Origin: Roseofilum acuticapitatum BLCC-M154
GTDB lineage: Bacteria > Cyanobacteriota > Cyanobacteriia > Cyanobacteriales > Desertifilaceae
Length of the DNA stretch: 64,000 nt
Assembly: GCF_030068475.1 (NCBI RefSeq)
Contig: NZ_JAQOSP010000006.1
Span: forward strand, 186,001 to 250,000
Direction of reading: 5' to 3'
Shown here: positions 39,292 through 48,295 of the stretch, one piece after another
Layout of the letters: each line of letters starts with the position of its first letter
Position numbering within the stretch: position 1 is the first letter of the stretch
The notes under the pieces: model-generated
The model's input: the letters and a program-made list of their open reading frames with translations, nothing else
Told to the model about the DNA's origin: nothing
Database searches by the model: none
Translations under genes and position numbers: made by a program

Positions 39292-39711
39292 TTATCCCCC
39301 TGTTACCAGCCAGTCTTCTACCGTCAGTTCCGGAACTCGCAGCATATCCGAGTCATGAGAAACCAAGACTAATTCTCTAATTATGGCGATCGCCGCGATA
39401 AAAATATCCGCATCTTCGAGCCTCATCCCCCTCTTCTTTAAATAAGCATGGATTTCTGCGGCTTTCTCCAGAATGGCGATATCGTTCCAGAATAGTATTG
39501 GAGTTCGCCTACAAATTCTCTCAAACTCAGCTAGTTTCCTGGTAGCATTGCTCGCCATCAAACCCCGTTTGACTTCGTAGTAAGTTATGCCACTGATATA
39601 GGCTCTTTTCTTTTGTACGGATAGCTGGACTAGCTTCTGCTTTACTGTCAAATTTTTCCTCAGAATGGCTGAAACCACATTGGTATCCAGTAGGTAATCT
39701 TTTCTTACCAT
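39292..39711 (-). CDS. PIN-domain toxin, VapC-like
   Basis: 139 residues. PIN-domain acidic residues are visible: the first Asp in YLLDTNVVSAIL at the N-terminus, Glu in YEVKRGLM near residue 50, DADIFIAAIA near residue 103 and the last acidic residue in VSHDSDML. VapC toxins are RNases, usually cutting tRNA or rRNA, held in check by a cognate antitoxin. The ATG at 39711 overlaps the end of the upstream antitoxin-like gene by seven bases, the usual coupled layout. An in-frame extension upstream to 39789 is unlikely to be used. Confidence 0.85.
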   Translation of the reverse strand: MVRKDYLLDTNVVSAILRKNLTVKQKLVQLSVQKKRAYISGITYYEVKRGLMASNATRKLAEFERICRRTPILFWNDIAILEKAAEIHAYLKKRGMRLEDADIFIAAIAIIRELVLVSHDSDMLRVPELTVEDWLVTGG

Positions 39712-40004
39712 CTTCCCTCTACAGCAGCATCGAATAGTTCCATTTGCTCCGGCGTGAAGTCGTCTAACATTCCAGAGGCTGCCTCCCACGCTAAGACTTT
39801 ATCGATGCGATCGCTCAGATCTTCATCGTCAATCTCTTGGAGTTCATCGGGACTCAGGTGTTCTTCTATCAAGCCGGATATATAGTTGACCATTTCCTCT
39901 AGGTCTAGTTTTTCACGAAACCAGCTTTCCTTCTCCATCAGCTCCTCGACTATCCGGGATATTCTGGCCGTGAGTGCATCTTTCTCTATAGTGCTTTGAT
40001 TCAT
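39705..40004 (-). CDS. Putative antitoxin of the PIN-toxin pair
   Basis: A 99-residue acidic, mainly helical protein (LTARISRIVEELMEKESWF, YISGLIEEHLSPDELQEIDD). No DNA-binding motif of known VapB families is obvious, so its role rests on position: it directly precedes and overlaps a PIN toxin. A second copy, differing at about a dozen positions, lies at 40219-40518. The C-terminal end (FTPEQMELFDAAVEGRW) is where VapB-type proteins usually contact the toxin. Confidence 0.7.
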   Translation of the reverse strand: MNQSTIEKDALTARISRIVEELMEKESWFREKLDLEEMVNYISGLIEEHLSPDELQEIDDEDLSDRIDKVLAWEAASGMLDDFTPEQMELFDAAVEGRW

Positions 40005-40087
40005 AACGCCTCCTTATGTTTAATCCCTTGTCATTCTCAAGCTTCTCTATTTATTTTAGCGATCGCCACGGCAAAAAGCGGATCGCC

Positions 40088-40222
40088 TTATGTGGTCGTT
40101 ACCAGCCAGTCTTCTACCGTCAGTTCCGGAACTCGCAGCATATCCGAGTCGTGAGAAACCAAGACTAATTCTCTAACTCTGGCGATCGCAGCGATAAAAA
40201 TATCGGCATCTTCGAGTCTCAT
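40088..40222 (-). pseudogene. Truncated second copy of the PIN toxin
   Basis: A 44-residue frame starting MRLEDADIFIAAIARVRELV and ending DWLVTTT, nearly identical to the C-terminal end of the toxin at 39292. About 280 bases holding the toxin N-terminus are missing, including the first catalytic Asp. The deletion joins the second antitoxin gene directly to this remnant, with an ATGA overlap at 40219-40222. It cannot form an active PIN domain alone. Confidence 0.75.
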
Positions 40223-40518
40223 CCCCCTCTTTTTACAGCAGCGTCGAATATTTCCATTTGCTCTGGCGTGAAGTCGTCTAACATTCCAGAGGCTGCCTCT
40301 AGGGTTAGGACTTTATGGATGCGATCGCTCAGATCTTCATCGTCAATCTCTTGGAGTTCATCGGTACTCAAATATTCTTCTATCAAGCCGGATACATAGT
40401 TGACCATTTCCTCTAGGTCTAGTTTTTCTCGAAACCAGCTTTCCTTCTCCATCAGCTCCTCGACTATCCGGGATATCCTGGCGGTGAGTGCATCTTTGTC
40501 TATAGTGCTTTGAGTCAT
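40219..40518 (-). CDS. Second antitoxin copy, without a complete partner toxin
   Basis: A 99-residue paralogue of the protein at 39705, identical over most of its length. It diverges mainly at the C-terminus (DAAVKRGG), where the reading frame runs into deleted toxin sequence. The upstream leader, with AAGCTTCTCTA and TTATTTTAGCGATCGC, is also duplicated (compare 40035-40066 and 40550-40582). It could still neutralise the intact toxin next door or act as an orphan antitoxin. Confidence 0.7.
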   Translation of the reverse strand: MTQSTIDKDALTARISRIVEELMEKESWFREKLDLEEMVNYVSGLIEEYLSTDELQEIDDEDLSDRIHKVLTLEAASGMLDDFTPEQMEIFDAAVKRGG

Positions 40519-40606
40519 AAGTCTTCCTTGGAGTTAATGGGCCATGCTCAAGAATAAAGCTTCTCTAGTTATTTTAGCGATCGCATCCGTTAGATCGCTC
40601 TTTAAC

Positions 40607-43600
40607 CTAATTCAAGCAAGCTCCCAGCTTTTGGGCGAGAATCTGGACATGGGGTGGCAGCATTATTTCATAATGGTCGCCGGGAATCATATAAGTTTCC
40701 AATGCTCCTGTTACCCAAGCCTTCCACCCTCGGTCTTCTTTTGACTCACTGGCTGAAAACAGAGCCACTCGACCCGAATAAGGCTGAGGTTGATAATCGT
40801 ATATTGCCTTCAGGTTAGCTTTGAAAACCTCAAACAATCGACCCATCTGTTCCAGGGATATTTCTGGGGGCAAAATATTCAGGCGTTTGGCTTCATTCAG
40901 GATGGAACTTAATTGTTCTGCTGGTTGAAGTGGCTGGATTTCCTGAGCGGAAATCGAGAACTCTTTGCCAAATATCCCGCCAAGATCCTCCAATAGAGCA
41001 TTAATCAAAAAAGTATCATCGATAGGTTTTTTATTCTGGCTGGGTGCATAACTGTCAATTAACGCCAATAGCTCAACATTTTGTCCCAAGGCTTGCAACT
41101 GTCGCGCCATTTCCCAAGCCACGACTCCACCCATCGACCAACCGCCTAAATAATAAGGGCCTTGGGGTTGAATTTGTTGTAAGGCTTCTATATAAATCGC
41201 CGCCATCTCCTCTATTTTTGTTAATGGTTCCTGTTCGCCAGATAACCCCAGAGACTGCAAGCCATAAAAGGGTTGGTTGTTGCCCAGATGTCGCGCTAAC
41301 TCGGCATAACAGAGAACATTACCGCCAACAGGATGCACGCAGAAAAATGGGGGTAAGTCTCCTGTGGTTTGAATGGGAACTAAGGGAGCATGGGAGCGAA
41401 CATTGCTTTGGGAAGAAAGCAAATGAGCTTGGCTTTCAATCGTCGGTTCGGTAAATAGCGTTGTCAAAGGTAGATGAATGCCCAACTGCTGTTCGATGCG
41501 AGCCATCAACCGCACCGCTAATAGGGAATGACCGCCCAAGTCAAAGAAATTGTCTCGGACTCCCACGGTGGGAATATTGAGAACTTCCGACCAAATTTGA
41601 GAAAGTTGCAGTTCGGTGGTACTGCGGGGGGCGATCGCATTTACTTGTTGATGTTCTGTATCCGGTGCAGGAAGGGCGCGGCGATATTGCATCCGCAACG
41701 CTTCGCGATCGCATTTTCCGTTGGGAGTTAGAGGAATTGCCTCTAAAAAGACATAAGCACTCGGTATCATGTAGTCAGGTAGCTTGGTTTTCAGGAAACC
41801 GCGCCAGTCAGAGGATGCCACTTCTTCTTTGGCAACGATATAAGCAACGAGACGCTTGTCCCCTGGAGAGTCTTCGCGAACAATAACCACAGCCGAGCTA
41901 ATTTCTGGGTGTTGAGTTAACGTAGCTTCGATTTCCCCAAGTTCGATGCGGAAGCCTCGAATTTTTACTTGGTTGTCAATGCGTCCAATGAATTCGATGT
42001 TGCCATCCGGGAGATAGCGGGCTAAATCGCCTGTTTTGTATAGGCGCGAACCGGGTTCGTCGCTAAAGGGATTGGGGATAAATTTTTGGGTGGTTAATTC
42101 GGGACGGTTGAGATAGCCTCGCGCTAATCCCGCACCGCCAATATGGAGTTCTCCTGGTATGCCAATGGGAACTGGTTGAAGATGGCTGTCTAGGATATAA
42201 ACCTGTAAATCGGAAATCGGCAAACCGATTGGGCTACTATTACGGTTTAGATCCGAGATCGTTAATGGACGATAGGTGACGTGGACTGTCGTTTCCGTAA
42301 TGCCATACATATTAATCAGTTGAGGAGAGCGATCGCCATGTCGATCGAACCACGGTTCTAGACTCTTGATTTCCAAAGCTTCTCCCCCAAAAATTACCAA
42401 ACGCAGGTTCAGAGGTTCTTGGGTTTCGCTTAACTCCTCGATTTGAATTAACTGCCGAAAGGCTGAAGGAGTTTGATTGAGAACCGTGACTTTATGTTGA
42501 CAAAGGAGTTGATAAAAGTCTTGGGGCGATCGCGAAATCCAATAAGGAACCACCACCAAACATCCTCCGTAAAGCAATGCTCCCCATATTTCCCACACGG
42601 AAAAATCAAAAGCGTAGGAATGAAATAGAGTCCAAACATCATTGTTATTGAAGCCAAACCAGGACTCAGTTGTGGCAAACAAGCGCACTACATTATCGTG
42701 TTGAATTAATACGCCCTTCGGTTGTCCCGTGGAACCGGAAGTATAGATGATGTAGGCGAGAGAGTTAAATGTGACGGGGGTTGTCAGATTGGTTGTAGCC
42801 TGCTGTGCAATCTGATGCCAGTCGGTATCTAAACAAATTGCCACATCAGGCAGGGAAGGAATTGTAGATTTGAGTTTTTCTTGTGTCAGCAGAATTGAAA
42901 TTCCAGCATCGGTGAGCATAAAGGTTGAGCGCTCTGCTGGAGAATTGGGATCGATCGGAACATAAGCCCCGCCTGCTTTGAGAATCCCTAAGATTCCTAC
43001 TACCATAGAGAGCGATCGCTCTACACATATCCCCACTAATACTTCCGGTTCGACTCCTAAAGAGCGTAAATAATGTGCCAGTTGATTCGCCCGACAATTT
43101 AACTCCCGATAGGTTAGCCGTTCTTCCTCAAAAACTACGGCTACAGCATCGGGATTCTGTTCCACCTGTTCTTCAAACAACTGATGAATGCACTTATCCT
43201 GGGGATATTCGACTTTGGTATCGTTCCACTCTACTAATAATTGATGACGTTCCGGTTCTGTTAATAACGGCAGTTCGCTAACTGGCGCTTTTGGATTAGC
43301 CAGAATTCCTTCTAGCAAAGTCTGAAAATGCCCCATCATCCGACGAATCGTTGCCGCATCAAACAAATCGCGATTATATTCCCAATAGCCAATTAATCCC
43401 GCTTCAGCTTCTTCCATCGACAGCGTTAGATCGAACTTGGCCTTGGCACTTTCCATCTGCAACCAATTAAAACTAATCTCCGGTAACTCCAGAGGTTTCA
43501 TCGGTGCATTTTGCAAGGCAAATATGACCTGAAAAATGGGCGAGTGGCTGAGGCTGCGTTCCGGTTGCAACGCCTCCACCAACTGCTCAAACGGCACATC

Positions 43601-46600
43601 CTGATGGGCATAAGCATCCAAACAAGTTTGCCGCACCTGTTGCAAGAGTTCGGAGAAACTCAAGTCGCCGTCCAATTGACTTCGCAACACCAGAGTATTC
43701 ACAAAAAAGCCGATTAGTCCTTCGATTTCGCTGCGGTTGCGGTTAGCAATGGGCGTACCGACTACAATATCTTCTTGACCGCTATAGCGATAAAGTAACG
43801 TGCTAAATGTAGCAAATAGCGTCATAAACAGAGTCACTCCCAACTCTTGACTCAGACGTTTGAGCCGTTCCGTAAATTCGACCCCAAGTTCAAAAAACTC
43901 TTTGCCTCCGTTAGCCGTCTGCACCGTTTTACGAGGATAGTCCGTGGGCAATTCTAATAAAGGAGGTACTCCAGCTAACTGTTGTTTCCAGTAATCCAGT
44001 TGTGGGGCTAGGATTTCAGCCGTAGTGGGTTGTCGCTGCCAACCGGCAAAATCAGCATATTGAATTGGCAGTGGCGGTAAGGGTGAGGGTTTTCCTTGAA
44101 CATAAGCCCCGTAAAGAACTTCTAACTCGTGGCTCAATACTCCCGTTGACCAACCATCGGTAATAATGTGGTGCATTGTCAACAACAGTACATAGTCATC
44201 GGCTGCTAACTGTAATAAAGTGACTCGCAGTAAAGGAGCGTTGGCTAGGTTAAAAGGTTTCTGAATTTCTTGCTCACCCAAATGCTGCACTTCTTTGAGC
44301 CGTTCTTCTACGGGCAAATTCTGTAAATCAACAACGGGCATTTTGAGTTCTTGTTCCGGGTGAATTACTCGGACTGGAGAACCATCCACGGCTTGATAAT
44401 TAGTTCGCAAGCTCTCGTGACGGCGGACTATTTCTTGCAAGGCTTGCTTTAGCCCGTTGACTTGTAGCGAACCTCTCAAACGTAGCCCTTCTTGCTCGTT
44501 ATAGGCAACACTTCCTTCCTGTAATTGGTCGAGAAACCAGAGGCGTTGTTCGGCAAAAGATAGGGGCAATTCTCCATCTCTTGGTACAGGTTGGATGGGA
44601 GCGAATTGTTGCCGAGAAGCCCCTAAGAGGGTTTCGCTCAATTCTGCCACAGTCGGCGATTCAAATAAACGATGCAGAGATAGTTCTATGCCAAAGGTAT
44701 CTCGAACTCGCGAAATCAGTTGCGTGGCTTGGATGGAGTCACCTCCTAACATAAAGAAGTTGTCTAAGACTCCAATTTCATTGAGATTTAGCACGTCTGC
44801 CCAAAGTCCGGCCAGAATTTCTTCGGTGGGAGTTCGCGGGGCTACTAATTCTACATCGAGAACTGGGCGAGACTTATCTGGGGCAGGTAGGGCGCGGCGA
44901 TCGACTTTTCCACTCGGACTTAGGGGCAGTTTGTCGAGAACAACAAATGCCGATGGCATCATATAATCGGGCAGTTTTTCTTGGAGAAACTCGCGCAACT
45001 GAGGAATGAGTTGATGGTGTTTCTTTCCTGTGTAGGGCTGATTGGCATAAGCGCTCCAGGGTTTGAGTTCGTTTTCTGGAGGTGAAATTATGCTGCAATC
45101 TGGAATGATGTTAGTGTCAGAACGCAGGAATACTACATCATAGTAAGCTTCGCCACTATTGCCTGACCCAGTAATGTTAATCCGATAATCTATTTCGGAT
45201 TCCAATTGCCACCAATTTTCGGGTTCAATTCCTCCTGGAGAAATGTGTTGCCGTAATTCCCCTGCGGTGTCGGGACATTCTGGACTAGCTAATCGTTCTA
45301 TTGCCTGTAAGTCTTGCCAAATTCTGGCGTTGGGAACGCTGCTGACAACGAGTATTTCTGGGGATGACGTTTGTAGTAAACGCTTTAGCGTTTTAAATCG
45401 GGCAGTTAAATTATCTTGCCCTGCCTCCCTTGCCCCCCAATCTTGGGAATCTTGTTGCCAGTTTAGAACAACGGGTGGATTTGTGGGAGTCGGTGTTTTT
45501 TTGCCGATATGAAGAACCACATCGTAGCGAAAGCGAGTGAGTTCGTTTTGATAATGCCCGCGCTTGAGTTGAATTTCTACATGGCTAATTTGGGGCAAAT
45601 GTTGTTTGAGAGCGATGAAGAAATCAGGGTTGATGATGAGTCGTTGTTCTCGCGAGAGCCGATCTTGAATGCGATGTCGTAATTGTGTTACTGATAGGGA
45701 ATCGGACGCTTGATATAACTGCACCGAAGTATGAAACGCTTCCAACAGGGGCAAACTCAGGATGTCTCCTAGGAAAATTTGACCTCCTGGTTCGACTAAC
45801 GATACCGCCGTTTCGATAACTTGTACTAAATAATCGATACTGGGGAAAAACTGAATCACCGAATTCGAGATAGCAGTATCAAAGTTTTCTTTGACAATTT
45901 CCGCTAATCCATCCGCAGGAGACTGACGTAGCATGACGGACTTGGCTAACTCTTGATTGCCGATTTGTCCTTCTAGGTAACGAATGGCTTCCCCAGATAG
46001 ATCGGTAGCGTAGTAATACTGGCATTGGGGCGCTATCCGAAACAACAGCAACCCTGTCCCGCAGCCAATTTCTAATAATCGATTGGGCTGCAAACCAAGA
46101 ATCCGCTCTACGGTATGCTCTACCCATTCTCGGACTTGTTCGGGGTCGAGGTCTTTCCCCGTATAAGAGTCGTTCCAGCCGCCAATATGAAAGCTTCCGT
46201 CTTGAGCTTCGTCAGGCTGGATATAAGCCTCATCCCAGATTTTCTGCCATTTTTGGGTCTGTTCGCTGACCTCTTCTGGATTTTGCTCGTCAGTGGTAGA
46301 ACTGGGAACAATGTACGCCACTAAGCGTTTTGCGTTGGGGACATCTTCCCGTGCTTCAACGATCGCTTGTTTGACTTCTGGGTTTTGGCTGAGGGTGGTT
46401 TCAATTTCTCCGAGTTCGATGCGATAGCCCCGGACTTTTACTTGGTGGTCGATGCGTCCGAGATATTCAATATTGCCGTCGGGAAGATAGCGAGCTAAAT
46501 CTCCGGTTTTGTAGAGACGGGAGTTGGGGTCTTGGCTAAAGGGATTAGGAATAAATTTTTCGGCGGTGAGTTCTGGTCTGTTCAAATATCCCCGTGCTAA

Positions 46601-47704
46601 ACCTAAACCTCCGATATGCAGTTCTCCGGGTTCGCCAATGGGAACGGGTTCTCGATCAGAATCTAAAATATAAGTCTGAGTGTTGGCAATGGGTCGCCCG
46701 ATCGCCACATTTCCTTCTCCCGGTTCCACTCGATACAGGGTTGCCCAAACGGTAATCTCTGTCGGGCCGTACAAGTTCCACAGAGAGGCAGATTTTTCTA
46801 ATAATGGGTTAGCTAATTTCCTCGGTAAGCGCTCTCCGGTGGAAATAACTTTCAGTTGTTGGCTGCCAGTCCAACCTGCATCCAACAACATTCGCCAAGT
46901 GGCTGGAGTGGCTGACATCACCGTAGCGTTTTGTTGCTTGAGCGACTCCATTAATTTTGCGGGGTCTTTGGCCACTTCGCGACTGACAATAATGATTTTT
47001 CCGCCGACGGTTAACGGCCCATAGAGTTCTGGGACTGAAACATCAAAAGAAATGGTGGTGACGGCAACCATCGTATCCGAGGCACTCAATCCGGGTTCGG
47101 CAGCAATTGAATTTAATAAATTAACCACCGAACGATGGGTAGTTTGCACTCCTTTGGGTTTGCCGGTAGAGCCGGAAGTGTAGATAATGTAGGCTAAATT
47201 TTCAGGATTAACATCACTCTCTGGATTGTCCTGACTCTGCTGCGATATCTTTTCCCAGTCATTATCTAAGTTAACTAACTTCAGAGAAGGTGCTGTCAAA
47301 CCCGATATGAGTTTCTCTTGGGTGACGACAATTGACAAAGCCGCATCTTCTACCATGAAGTCAAGACGTTCTTTGGGATAAGCGGGGTCTAAGGGAACGT
47401 AAGCGCCACCGGCTTTGAGGATTCCCACCATGGCCACTACCATATCCAAGGAGCGATCGACGCACAGACCGACCAAGACCTCTGGCCCAACTCCCAACCC
47501 TTGCAAGTACCCAGCCAATTGGTTAGCCCGTTGGTTCAGTTCCCGATAGGTGAGTTGTTCATCCTCGAATACAACTGCCACCGAGTCGGGGGTTCGCTCG
47601 ACTTGGGCGGCAAATAACTGATGGATACACTTGTCGTGGGGATAGTCTGCTTGTGTATGGTTCCAGGAGGTTAATGGGCGATCGCCTTCTGATGCTGTGG
47701 CCAT
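40607..47704 (-). CDS. Bimodular non-ribosomal peptide synthetase, A-MT-T-C-A-T-TE
   Basis: About 2365 residues. Module 1 has no condensation domain. It consists of adenylation (about 30-480; YTSGSTGKPKGV, NLYGPTE), an inserted SAM N-methyltransferase (about 505-870; LLEIGCGTGLLLF) before the last adenylation motif, and a carrier domain (LGGDSIQATQ). Module 2 has condensation (MHHIITDGWS), adenylation (NMYGITETTVHV), a carrier (LGGHSLLAVR) and a type I thioesterase (GGWSMGG, GDHYEIM). The second adenylation code reads DFWNIGMVHK, the threonine signature. The first reads roughly DVPSITLVWK, unassigned. The expected product is an N-methylated aminoacyl-threonine or a cyclised or oligomerised form. 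The ATG at 47704 is preferred over a TTG at 47725. No tailoring or transport genes adjoin. Confidence 0.9.
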   Translation of the reverse strand: MATASEGDRPLTSWNHTQADYPHDKCIHQLFAAQVERTPDSVAVVFEDEQLTYRELNQRANQLAGYLQGLGVGPEVLVGLCVDRSLDMVVAMVGILKAGGAYVPLDPAYPKERLDFMVEDAALSIVVTQEKLISGLTAPSLKLVNLDNDWEKISQQSQDNPESDVNPENLAYIIYTSGSTGKPKGVQTTHRSVVNLLNSIAAEPGLSASDTMVAVTTISFDVSVPELYGPLTVGGKIIIVSREVAKDPAKLMESLKQQNATVMSATPATWRMLLDAGWTGSQQLKVISTGERLPRKLANPLLEKSASLWNLYGPTEITVWATLYRVEPGEGNVAIGRPIANTQTYILDSDREPVPIGEPGELHIGGLGLARGYLNRPELTAEKFIPNPFSQDPNSRLYKTGDLARYLPDGNIEYLGRIDHQVKVRGYRIELGEIETTLSQNPEVKQAIVEAREDVPNAKRLVAYIVPSSTTDEQNPEEVSEQTQKWQKIWDEAYIQPDEAQDGSFHIGGWNDSYTGKDLDPEQVREWVEHTVERILGLQPNRLLEIGCGTGLLLFRIAPQCQYYYATDLSGEAIRYLEGQIGNQELAKSVMLRQSPADGLAEIVKENFDTAISNSVIQFFPSIDYLVQVIETAVSLVEPGGQIFLGDILSLPLLEAFHTSVQLYQASDSLSVTQLRHRIQDRLSREQRLIINPDFFIALKQHLPQISHVEIQLKRGHYQNELTRFRYDVVLHIGKKTPTPTNPPVVLNWQQDSQDWGAREAGQDNLTARFKTLKRLLQTSSPEILVVSSVPNARIWQDLQAIERLASPECPDTAGELRQHISPGGIEPENWWQLESEIDYRINITGSGNSGEAYYDVVFLRSDTNIIPDCSIISPPENELKPWSAYANQPYTGKKHHQLIPQLREFLQEKLPDYMMPSAFVVLDKLPLSPSGKVDRRALPAPDKSRPVLDVELVAPRTPTEEILAGLWADVLNLNEIGVLDNFFMLGGDSIQATQLISRVRDTFGIELSLHRLFESPTVAELSETLLGASRQQFAPIQPVPRDGELPLSFAEQRLWFLDQLQEGSVAYNEQEGLRLRGSLQVNGLKQALQEIVRRHESLRTNYQAVDGSPVRVIHPEQELKMPVVDLQNLPVEERLKEVQHLGEQEIQKPFNLANAPLLRVTLLQLAADDYVLLLTMHHIITDGWSTGVLSHELEVLYGAYVQGKPSPLPPLPIQYADFAGWQRQPTTAEILAPQLDYWKQQLAGVPPLLELPTDYPRKTVQTANGGKEFFELGVEFTERLKRLSQELGVTLFMTLFATFSTLLYRYSGQEDIVVGTPIANRNRSEIEGLIGFFVNTLVLRSQLDGDLSFSELLQQVRQTCLDAYAHQDVPFEQLVEALQPERSLSHSPIFQVIFALQNAPMKPLELPEISFNWLQMESAKAKFDLTLSMEEAEAGLIGYWEYNRDLFDAATIRRMMGHFQTLLEGILANPKAPVSELPLLTEPERHQLLVEWNDTKVEYPQDKCIHQLFEEQVEQNPDAVAVVFEEERLTYRELNCRANQLAHYLRSLGVEPEVLVGICVERSLSMVVGILGILKAGGAYVPIDPNSPAERSTFMLTDAGISILLTQEKLKSTIPSLPDVAICLDTDWHQIAQQATTNLTTPVTFNSLAYIIYTSGSTGQPKGVLIQHDNVVRLFATTESWFGFNNNDVWTLFHSYAFDFSVWEIWGALLYGGCLVVVPYWISRSPQDFYQLLCQHKVTVLNQTPSAFRQLIQIEELSETQEPLNLRLVIFGGEALEIKSLEPWFDRHGDRSPQLINMYGITETTVHVTYRPLTISDLNRNSSPIGLPISDLQVYILDSHLQPVPIGIPGELHIGGAGLARGYLNRPELTTQKFIPNPFSDEPGSRLYKTGDLARYLPDGNIEFIGRIDNQVKIRGFRIELGEIEATLTQHPEISSAVVIVREDSPGDKRLVAYIVAKEEVASSDWRGFLKTKLPDYMIPSAYVFLEAIPLTPNGKCDREALRMQYRRALPAPDTEHQQVNAIAPRSTTELQLSQIWSEVLNIPTVGVRDNFFDLGGHSLLAVRLMARIEQQLGIHLPLTTLFTEPTIESQAHLLSSQSNVRSHAPLVPIQTTGDLPPFFCVHPVGGNVLCYAELARHLGNNQPFYGLQSLGLSGEQEPLTKIEEMAAIYIEALQQIQPQGPYYLGGWSMGGVVAWEMARQLQALGQNVELLALIDSYAPSQNKKPIDDTFLINALLEDLGGIFGKEFSISAQEIQPLQPAEQLSSILNEAKRLNILPPEISLEQMGRLFEVFKANLKAIYDYQPQPYSGRVALFSASESKEDRGWKAWVTGALETYMIPGDHYEIMLPPHVQILAQKLGACLN

Positions 47705-47839
47705 AGACTGATTTTTCCAGTTCAACTTGGCAACTAGGGTAAGTTCCAGGTTTATTTTATCAGATGGCGAGGGATTGTCGAGATAGAAATTGAGGCAGAA
47801 GAAAGATGGAGAGGATGAGTTTTAGATCGCCATTAACCC

Positions 47840-48226
47840 TTAGCCTAAAGCACCAAATAATCCTAAAACCACACCCAAGCCAAAGACTACAGCTAGAGCC
47901 ACAAGGGTAAGGATCAAAACCCAATACTGTAAGGTATAGAGTTTTCGCAATTCTCCTAACGCTCCCATTAAGTTCTCAATATCCTGACCTTGAGTATCCA
48001 CAATGCGCTTAAAGGCAGTAGAAGCTTGATATGTCCAAATGCCGATTAAAAAATCGGCTACTCCTGAAATCATTTCTCCGATACCTTCTGCTGCTCAAAA
48101 CAGTCCCAAGACTGCCGTCAGAACTCCACCAATTATTAAAAAAATACTAACAAATTTCATGCGATTGGCTAATTGCCCAATCAGCACATTTTGGGAATTA
48201 TCAAATTCATAATTAGAAGACCGCAT
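47840..48226 (-). pseudogene. Small membrane protein gene split by an in-frame TGA
   Basis: From the ATG at 48226 the frame encodes MRSSNYEFDNSQNVLIGQLA and a hydrophobic helix ending LTAVLGLF, then meets TGA at 48095-48097. It stays in frame through AAEGIGEMISGVADFLIGIW and a second hydrophobic C-terminal segment to 47840. Together it would be a 128-residue membrane protein resembling the DUF5362 type. Either it is a recent nonsense pseudogene, a sequencing error, or the second part restarts at the ATG at 48073. It lies upstream of the NRPS on the same strand. Confidence 0.65.
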
Positions 48227-48295
48227 AATTGCCAACCTACCAGAAAGCGTTTATCCTACTGTCTAGAGTAAAACAGAAGAGGAAACCCGTAATCA

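What the first reader, a model, noticed from the sequence alone, without database searches (positions are those of the whole stretch)
40607..47704. Orphan two-module NRPS with an N-methyltransferase in its initiation module and a threonine-specific second module
The domain order A-MT-T-C-A-T-TE is complete in one gene, with no partner synthetase, transporter or tailoring gene nearby. Reading the ten specificity residues gives DFWNIGMVHK for the second A domain, the established Thr code. With only two residues and a thioesterase, the product would be an N-methyl-X-Thr dipeptide, or a cyclised or oligomerised form made by the thioesterase. I know of no described cyanobacterial compound that fits.
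Basis: partly seen in the sequence, partly recalled or inferred. Interest (0 to 1): 0.65.

Follow-up and report, generated by a model that had tools for sequence, protein, structure and literature searches.

The report
Single-gene N-methyl-dipeptide synthetase, swapped specificities
One cyanobacterial gene encodes a complete two-step peptide-making enzyme, and related species carry nearly the same enzyme with its amino-acid-choosing parts exchanged, which makes it a compact natural experiment in how such enzymes change their product.

Summary
Window 40607-47704 (minus strand) encodes a complete A-NMT-T-C-A-T-TE synthetase with the catalytic motifs I checked present. Module 2 has the Thr code DFWNIGMVHK. 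Module 1 reads DVPSITLVWK, a code found in no paper searched and nested in a glycine-type clade; residue 1 is unknown, probably small. The likeliest product is N-methyl-X-Thr, released by the TE.

It is not a lone orphan. Relatives of similar build occur in four cyanobacterial families, partly by horizontal transfer, and three copies lie together in one genome. In a congener the gene is cleanly absent (7.2 kb against 180 bp), so it behaves as a single-gene cassette. Its striking property is exchange of specificity: in six relatives the C domain is 76-89% identical to the window's, while exchanged adenylation cores are 51-57% and carry other codes. Two relatives of one genus carry two adenylation cores in tandem in module 2, sharing one C-terminal subdomain.

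Adenylation-core exchange is already described for cyanobacterial NRPSs, and the domain order is that of LtxA (lyngbyatoxin) with TE in place of reductase. I file it as a new member of a known kind, valuable as a small, complete, natural swap series.

The parts
40607..47704 (-). synthetase gene from the ATG (2365 aa); TTG-started frame reaches 47725 (2372 aa, numbering used here)
46436..47638 (-). A1 core, code DVPSITLVWK
45416..46243 (-). SAM-dependent methyltransferase inserted in A1 between core and subdomain; taken as N-methyltransferase
   Evidence: Pfam; only solved relative 5wmm E 9.2e-47
44861..45088 (-). A1 C-terminal subdomain with A10 motif PSGKVDR
44621..44833 (-). carrier domain T1 (LGGDS)
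43241..44593 (-). condensation domain (HHIITDG)
41981..43198 (-). A2 core, Thr code DFWNIGMVHK
41696..41953 (-). A2 C-terminal subdomain (PNGKCDR)
41411..41638 (-). carrier domain T2 (LGGHS)
40610..41368 (-). type I thioesterase (GWSMG, GDH)
45656..47443 (-). approximate stretch exchanged relative to G005 (A1 core plus about the first two thirds of the MT, residues 95-690)
42176..42958 (-). approximate stretch of A2 exchanged relative to G002, G004, G001 and G258 (residues 1590-1850)
40590..47825 (.). stretch absent from congener G003, where 180 bp stand instead (single-gene cassette)
   Evidence: no match in G003

Best explanation
The gene is a self-contained, two-module peptide synthetase. 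Module 1 (no C domain) adenylates an amino acid X, loads it on T1 and N-methylates it with the inserted methyltransferase; module 2 adenylates threonine; the C domain joins them to N-methyl-X-Thr on T2; the TE releases the product. Domain presence, motifs and the Thr code are shown; N- rather than O- or C-methylation, activity and the mode of release are inferred. X is not known; its pocket is a changed glycine-type pocket. I think simple hydrolysis to a linear N-methyl dipeptide is the likeliest release. The gene is a dispensable cassette whose specificity-determining A-core stretches have been exchanged repeatedly by recombination while the C, T and mostly the TE domains stayed.
For: Domains and motifs. 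Thr code. MT: its only solved relative is 5wmm (E 9.2e-47), which I recall as the interrupted A domain of TioS, a backbone N-methylating enzyme. One phosphopantetheinyl-transferase locus in the genome. A1 core falls in a clade with glycine-code cores (99 SH-aLRT, quick tree); nearest cores outside the family read DISQITLIWK, DVSQITLIWK or DILQLG(M/L)(I/V)WK. Exchange: WIN against G005 has A2 97% and C 89% but A1 55%; against G002 A1 83%, C 86%, A2 54%; G004 against G109 A1 93, MT 97, C 94, TE 87 but A2 49%, with abrupt drops in nucleotide identity. G005's A1 core is closest to G004's A2 core (70%; 100 SH-aLRT), so a core type occurs in both module positions. Clade tests reject the vertical arrangement (p 5.8e-32, 1.5e-5, 1.8e-39). 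Empty site in G003. Transfer between families: G004-G109 C domain 94% against BioB 77%, grouped 100/99 in the C tree.
Against: No product, expression or biochemical data. X is not predicted. Codes other than Thr and Gly are named from recall. The clades tested were named after identities had been seen, on a quick tree. The exchanged unit is not uniform: WIN-G005 includes most of the MT, G004-G109 runs on into the subdomain, and G001's TE is of another type (43% to the window). The C tree leaves the order of most members unresolved (7 of 12 inner branches open).
Confidence: 0.75

Rival explanations
1. The TE cyclises or oligomerises: a diketopiperazine, or a lactone made through the threonine hydroxyl (for example a dimer), is released.
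For: The Thr hydroxyl is available, and TEs such as EntF's, which this TE matches more weakly (E 4.5e-18), oligomerise (recalled). The best solved match of the TE is 4zxh (E 3.1e-49), whose product I do not know.
Against: No sequence feature here separates cyclising from hydrolysing TEs. Relatives with the same domain order end module 2 in codes without a side-chain hydroxyl (glycine-like, Val-like), so a hydroxyl-dependent release cannot be general. Three relatives have a Pro-like first code (G223x, G170, G044); if their Pro is N-methylated no ring nitrogen would be free, though two of them lack the NSVxxFP motif.
Confidence: 0.3
2. It is one subunit of a larger assembly line whose partner is elsewhere or was lost.
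For: In G001 and G004 a second NRPS gene (3010 and 2052 aa) follows on the same strand 318 and 120 bp downstream.
Against: The window gene has its own initiating module and its own TE; the downstream genes also start with an A domain and end in their own TE. In WIN, G002 and G005 no NRPS lies beside it in the stretches read, and the window genome's only other strong C domain is in a PKS/NRPS cluster on another contig.
Confidence: 0.12
3. The low identity of the A cores is fast divergence under selection, not recombination.
For: A-core inner regions are the most variable part of NRPSs in general.
Against: Identity falls abruptly to 35-60% at nucleotide level between stretches of 90-100%, and the exchanged cores are closest to cores of other synthetases or of the other module position; clade tests reject the vertical tree.
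Confidence: 0.04
4. The gene is silent or decaying.
For: It is absent from one congener, split into two ORFs in G008 and truncated in G305.
Against: The window copy is an uninterrupted 2372-codon frame with its motifs intact, as are ten other full-length copies of 2344-2422 aa.
Confidence: 0.08

Closest known systems
LtxA, lyngbyatoxin synthetase (A-NM-T-C-A-T-R; PMC13413415 figure legend; PMC3252866 passage)
   Same: Cyanobacterial, one gene, two modules, starting A domain with inserted N-methyltransferase, one C domain, dipeptide product.
   Different: LtxA releases reductively; here a TE. No P450/MbtH or prenyltransferase beside the gene. Residues Val and Trp (recalled) against X and Thr.
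A-core exchange in cyanobacterial NRPSs: microcystin mcyB1/mcyC (PMC2174460, abstract seen) and the survey PMC8097286 (abstract, section 6 and passages)
   Same: Recombination replaces the A core, leaving C domains, and usually the subdomain, in place.
   Different: There, single positions in long assembly lines; here both positions of a minimal, complete, single-gene synthetase, in one case with most of the MT, with one core type found in both module positions, and a tandem-core state in two relatives.
McyA module 1 (Ser-NMT) and other cyanobacterial A-NMT modules (recalled)
   Same: A domain interrupted by NMT at the same place.
   Different: Part of a multi-gene assembly line.
Second-A Thr pocket of OciA (cyanopeptolin; PMC2533009 Table 1 seen)
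   Same: Identical ten-letter code.
   Different: Seven-residue peptide, other architecture.

Membership tests
Type I modular NRPS, bimodular with TE | A, T, C and TE domains with catalytic motifs | tested here: met
Type I modular NRPS, bimodular with TE | activity: adenylation, condensation, release | not testable with these tools
   no assay
LtxA-like N-methyl-dipeptide synthetase | order A-NMT-T-C-A-T | tested here: met
LtxA-like N-methyl-dipeptide synthetase | terminal reductase domain | tested here: not met
   Pfam Thioesterase 2126-2366, no reductase family listed
LtxA-like N-methyl-dipeptide synthetase | adjacent P450/MbtH and prenyltransferase genes | tested here: not met
   ten of the neighbouring ORFs scanned with Pfam; other ORFs of the window not scanned
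N-methylating interrupted A domain | MT inserted between A8 and A10 | tested here: met
   A8 at 423, MT motif I at 551, A10 at 937
N-methylating interrupted A domain | methyl group goes to the backbone nitrogen | tested here: inconclusive
   similarity to 5wmm over residues 10-273 of the queried stretch; its methylation site is recalled
Thr-activating A domain | code DFWNIGMVHK | tested here: met
   PMC12283262 also lists this code among Thr domains, in a sentence on modified Thr
Gly-activating A domain (module 1) | code DILQLG(M/L)(I/V)WK | tested here: not met
   DVPSITLVWK, although in the same clade

The most novel reading that the evidence does not exclude
This lineage is a naturally evolving specificity cassette system: a single-gene, transferable dipeptide synthetase in which A-core units are exchanged at recurring boundaries, between species and between the two module positions, and the tandem A-core genes (two cores, one shared subdomain; the first core lacking A7, A8 and A10) are retained intermediates or silent spare specificities that can be brought into use.
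Probability: 0.25. Interest if true: 0.7.

Novelty: new member of a known kind. Interest (0 to 1): 0.45.

Why it matters
How nature swaps NRPS specificity without breaking the enzyme, and whether C domains act as filters, are open practical questions. Here complete, roughly 260 kDa synthetases with closely related C domains carry different A cores: G004 and G109 differ almost only around the A2 core (C domain 94% identical), WIN and G005 almost only in the A1 core plus most of the MT. Each is small enough to express and its product can be read directly. The invariant but unassigned pocket DVPSITLVWK in eight family members may also point to an unassigned starter residue.

Tried and rejected
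Naming the organism: not achieved. A Roseofilum guess was looked at in PMC9967302 (passages) and not adopted.

Predicting X from the code: a paper search for DVPSITLVW and the DWWH.GMII codes gave only two unrelated physics papers; neighbour codes gave one paper, for the glycine code DILQLGMIWK. Codes were read for only 30 of the many loci. A first extraction failed on minus-strand loci and was replaced.

Structure prediction was not run: coordinates would not have been available for a pocket analysis.

Tandem cores as an assembly artefact: rejected, since two separate genomes share a 95% identical junction (2 of 388 genomes). G305's second core breaks off and no continuation was seen in the 1.6 kb read, so that copy is probably broken.

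Members left out of the family count: G009 (1296 aa, 672 bits) and G105 (1320 aa, 668 bits), which have other domain make-up. G258 (664 bits, partial match) and the Okeania contig (ends inside the gene) were added for their domain make-up.

(translation of 47838-48230) was in an uninformative frame and is not used.

Full report
Observation. Pfam gives A, MT, T, C, A, T, TE in that order, and the motifs of each are present. The A2 code DFWNIGMVHK is that of the Thr module of cyanopeptolin synthetase (PMC2533009 Table 1, passages seen). PMC12283262 lists the same code among Thr domains, in a sentence about modified Thr (passage). The A1 code is DVPSITLVWK. In these codes the tenth letter K was supplied by my script; in the window protein both A10 lysines are there.

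Module 1. The MT's only solved relative at E 0.001 is 5wmm (9.2e-47), which I recall as the N-methylating interrupted A domain of TioS. The A1 core lies in a 12-row clade with glycine-code cores (99 SH-aLRT, quick tree). Of the 30 best loci in the order whose code I read, 8 carry DVPSITLVWK and all 8 belong to this family; the nearest others read DVSQITLIWK, DISQITLIWK or glycine codes. Positions 322, 330 and 331 (L, V, W) are those shared by Gly- and Cys-type pockets (PMC12283262 section 10). I conclude that X is probably small and leave it open.

Family. An HMM of the MT region over 388 genomes of the order gives 15 places in 12 genomes at 716 bits or more, then a drop to 672. With G258 and the Okeania contig added for their domain make-up, members lie in four family codes (f1, f2, f8, f14; the Okeania contig placed in f2 by inference). 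Eleven copies are full-length at 2344-2422 aa, counting the window's. G044 begins with a partial C domain (2590 aa), G258 has 2777 aa, G305 and the Okeania copy are incomplete, G008 is split in two ORFs, and G109 also has a 1316-aa A-MT-T-TE gene about 6 kb upstream of its full copy. G223 carries three copies within about 25 kb. In the genus the gene is in G001, G002, G004 and G005 and not in G003.

Single-gene cassette. In G003 the flanks of the window gene adjoin: window 40590 to 47825 corresponds to about 180 bp. G001 and G002 share the ATPase flank and G005 the PIN/bioB flank. In G004 the gene is elsewhere. G004's copy groups with that of G109, from another family, with 100/99 support; C domains 94% and MT 97% identical against 77% for BioB, while G004 and its congener G001 share 85% in BioB. 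This fits horizontal transfer.

Exchange of specificity. Against the window, in six relatives C is 76-89%. A1 is 55% in G005 but 66-83% in the other five; A2 is 97% in G005 and 83% in G109 but 51-57% in G002, G004, G001 and G258. The drops are abrupt: residues about 95-690 for G005 (so most of the MT goes with the core) and about 1590-1850 for G002. In the pair G004-G109 the drop runs from about 1560 to 2040, into the subdomain, so the unit is not always the core alone. First-module codes: 8 of 18 read DVPSITLVWK, the rest glycine-, Val- or Pro-like codes, DTM(V)(I/L)GCIYK or DWWHCGMIIK. Second-module cores: 11 codes in 16 cores, among them Thr (3), Asp-like (3), Gln/Glu-like, Leu-like, Gly-like and unknown ones (names other than Thr and Gly recalled). 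G005's A1 core and G004's A2 core form a pair (70%; 100): one core type in both module positions. Four clade tests, on sets named after the identities were seen and on a quick tree, all rejected the vertical arrangement or common core (p 5.8e-32, 1.5e-5, 1.8e-39, and 0.0023 for the first cores of G258 and G305). G001's TE is also of another type (43%), while the TE of the NRPS gene next to it is 83% identical to the window's.

Tandem cores. In G258, module 2 holds two A cores (codes DLTKIGHVGK and DTEDTGGVMK) followed by one subdomain; the first core lacks the A7 TGD, A8 and A10. G305, same genus, has the same junction (95% over 91 residues) with a Leu-like first core and breaks off in its second core. 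Two of 388 genomes have the junction. That the first core differs while the junction is kept suggests that exchange went on after the duplication; by motif the first core should be inactive alone.

Mechanism. X is adenylated, loaded on T1 and N-methylated; Thr is loaded on T2; C makes the bond; TE releases. Shown: domains, motifs, Thr code. Inferred: methyl on N, activity, release. Relatives with the same order but with second-module codes lacking a hydroxyl (Gly-like, Val-like) argue against release through the Thr hydroxyl as a general rule.

Known or new. LtxA has the same order up to its reductase (PMC13413415 legend). A-core exchange without the C domain is described (PMC2174460 abstract; PMC8097286 abstract, section 6 and passages), and for hybrids in PMC12184294 (passages). 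'Tandem' and 'duplicat' do not occur in the main text of PMC8097286, and a search for tandem or inactive A domains listed nothing evidently of this kind (listing only). No compound was found for this family (open-licence PMC only; listings). Hence a new member of a known kind.

Noticed in passing
L175 4999-13332 (G258) and L168 8740-15051 (G305): Two adenylation cores in tandem in module 2 sharing one subdomain; first core lacks A7 TGD, A8 and A10; junction 95% identical while first cores differ; G305 copy breaks off.
   Followed up: partly
window 39292-40590: PIN gene with a 99-aa partner ORF, followed by a second nearly identical 99-aa ORF (40219-40518) and a piece (about 40098-40234) matching the 3' part of the PIN gene of G003: a partly deleted tandem copy of the pair.
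   Followed up: partly
window 47838-48230: DNA aligns with a 131-aa small membrane-like ORF of G003 (128 aa in G001 and G002), but no ORF of 80 aa or more is listed in the window there; probably broken.
   Followed up: no
G000 contig C148 (L035-L037): PKS/NRPS cluster with an ECH domain, a TubC-type docking domain, a C-A-T module fused to a PKS module and several carrier domains (four of its ORFs scanned); recalled resemblance to curacin/malyngamide-type pathways.
   Followed up: no
L169/L170 (G223 C178): Three A-MT-T-C-A-T-TE genes within about 25 kb with Pro/Gln-like, Gly/unknown and Val/Gly-like code pairs.
   Followed up: partly
L166 7834-11784 (G109): 1316-aa A(Gly code)-MT-T-TE gene about 6 kb upstream of the full synthetase: looks like a module-deleted copy.
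   Followed up: no
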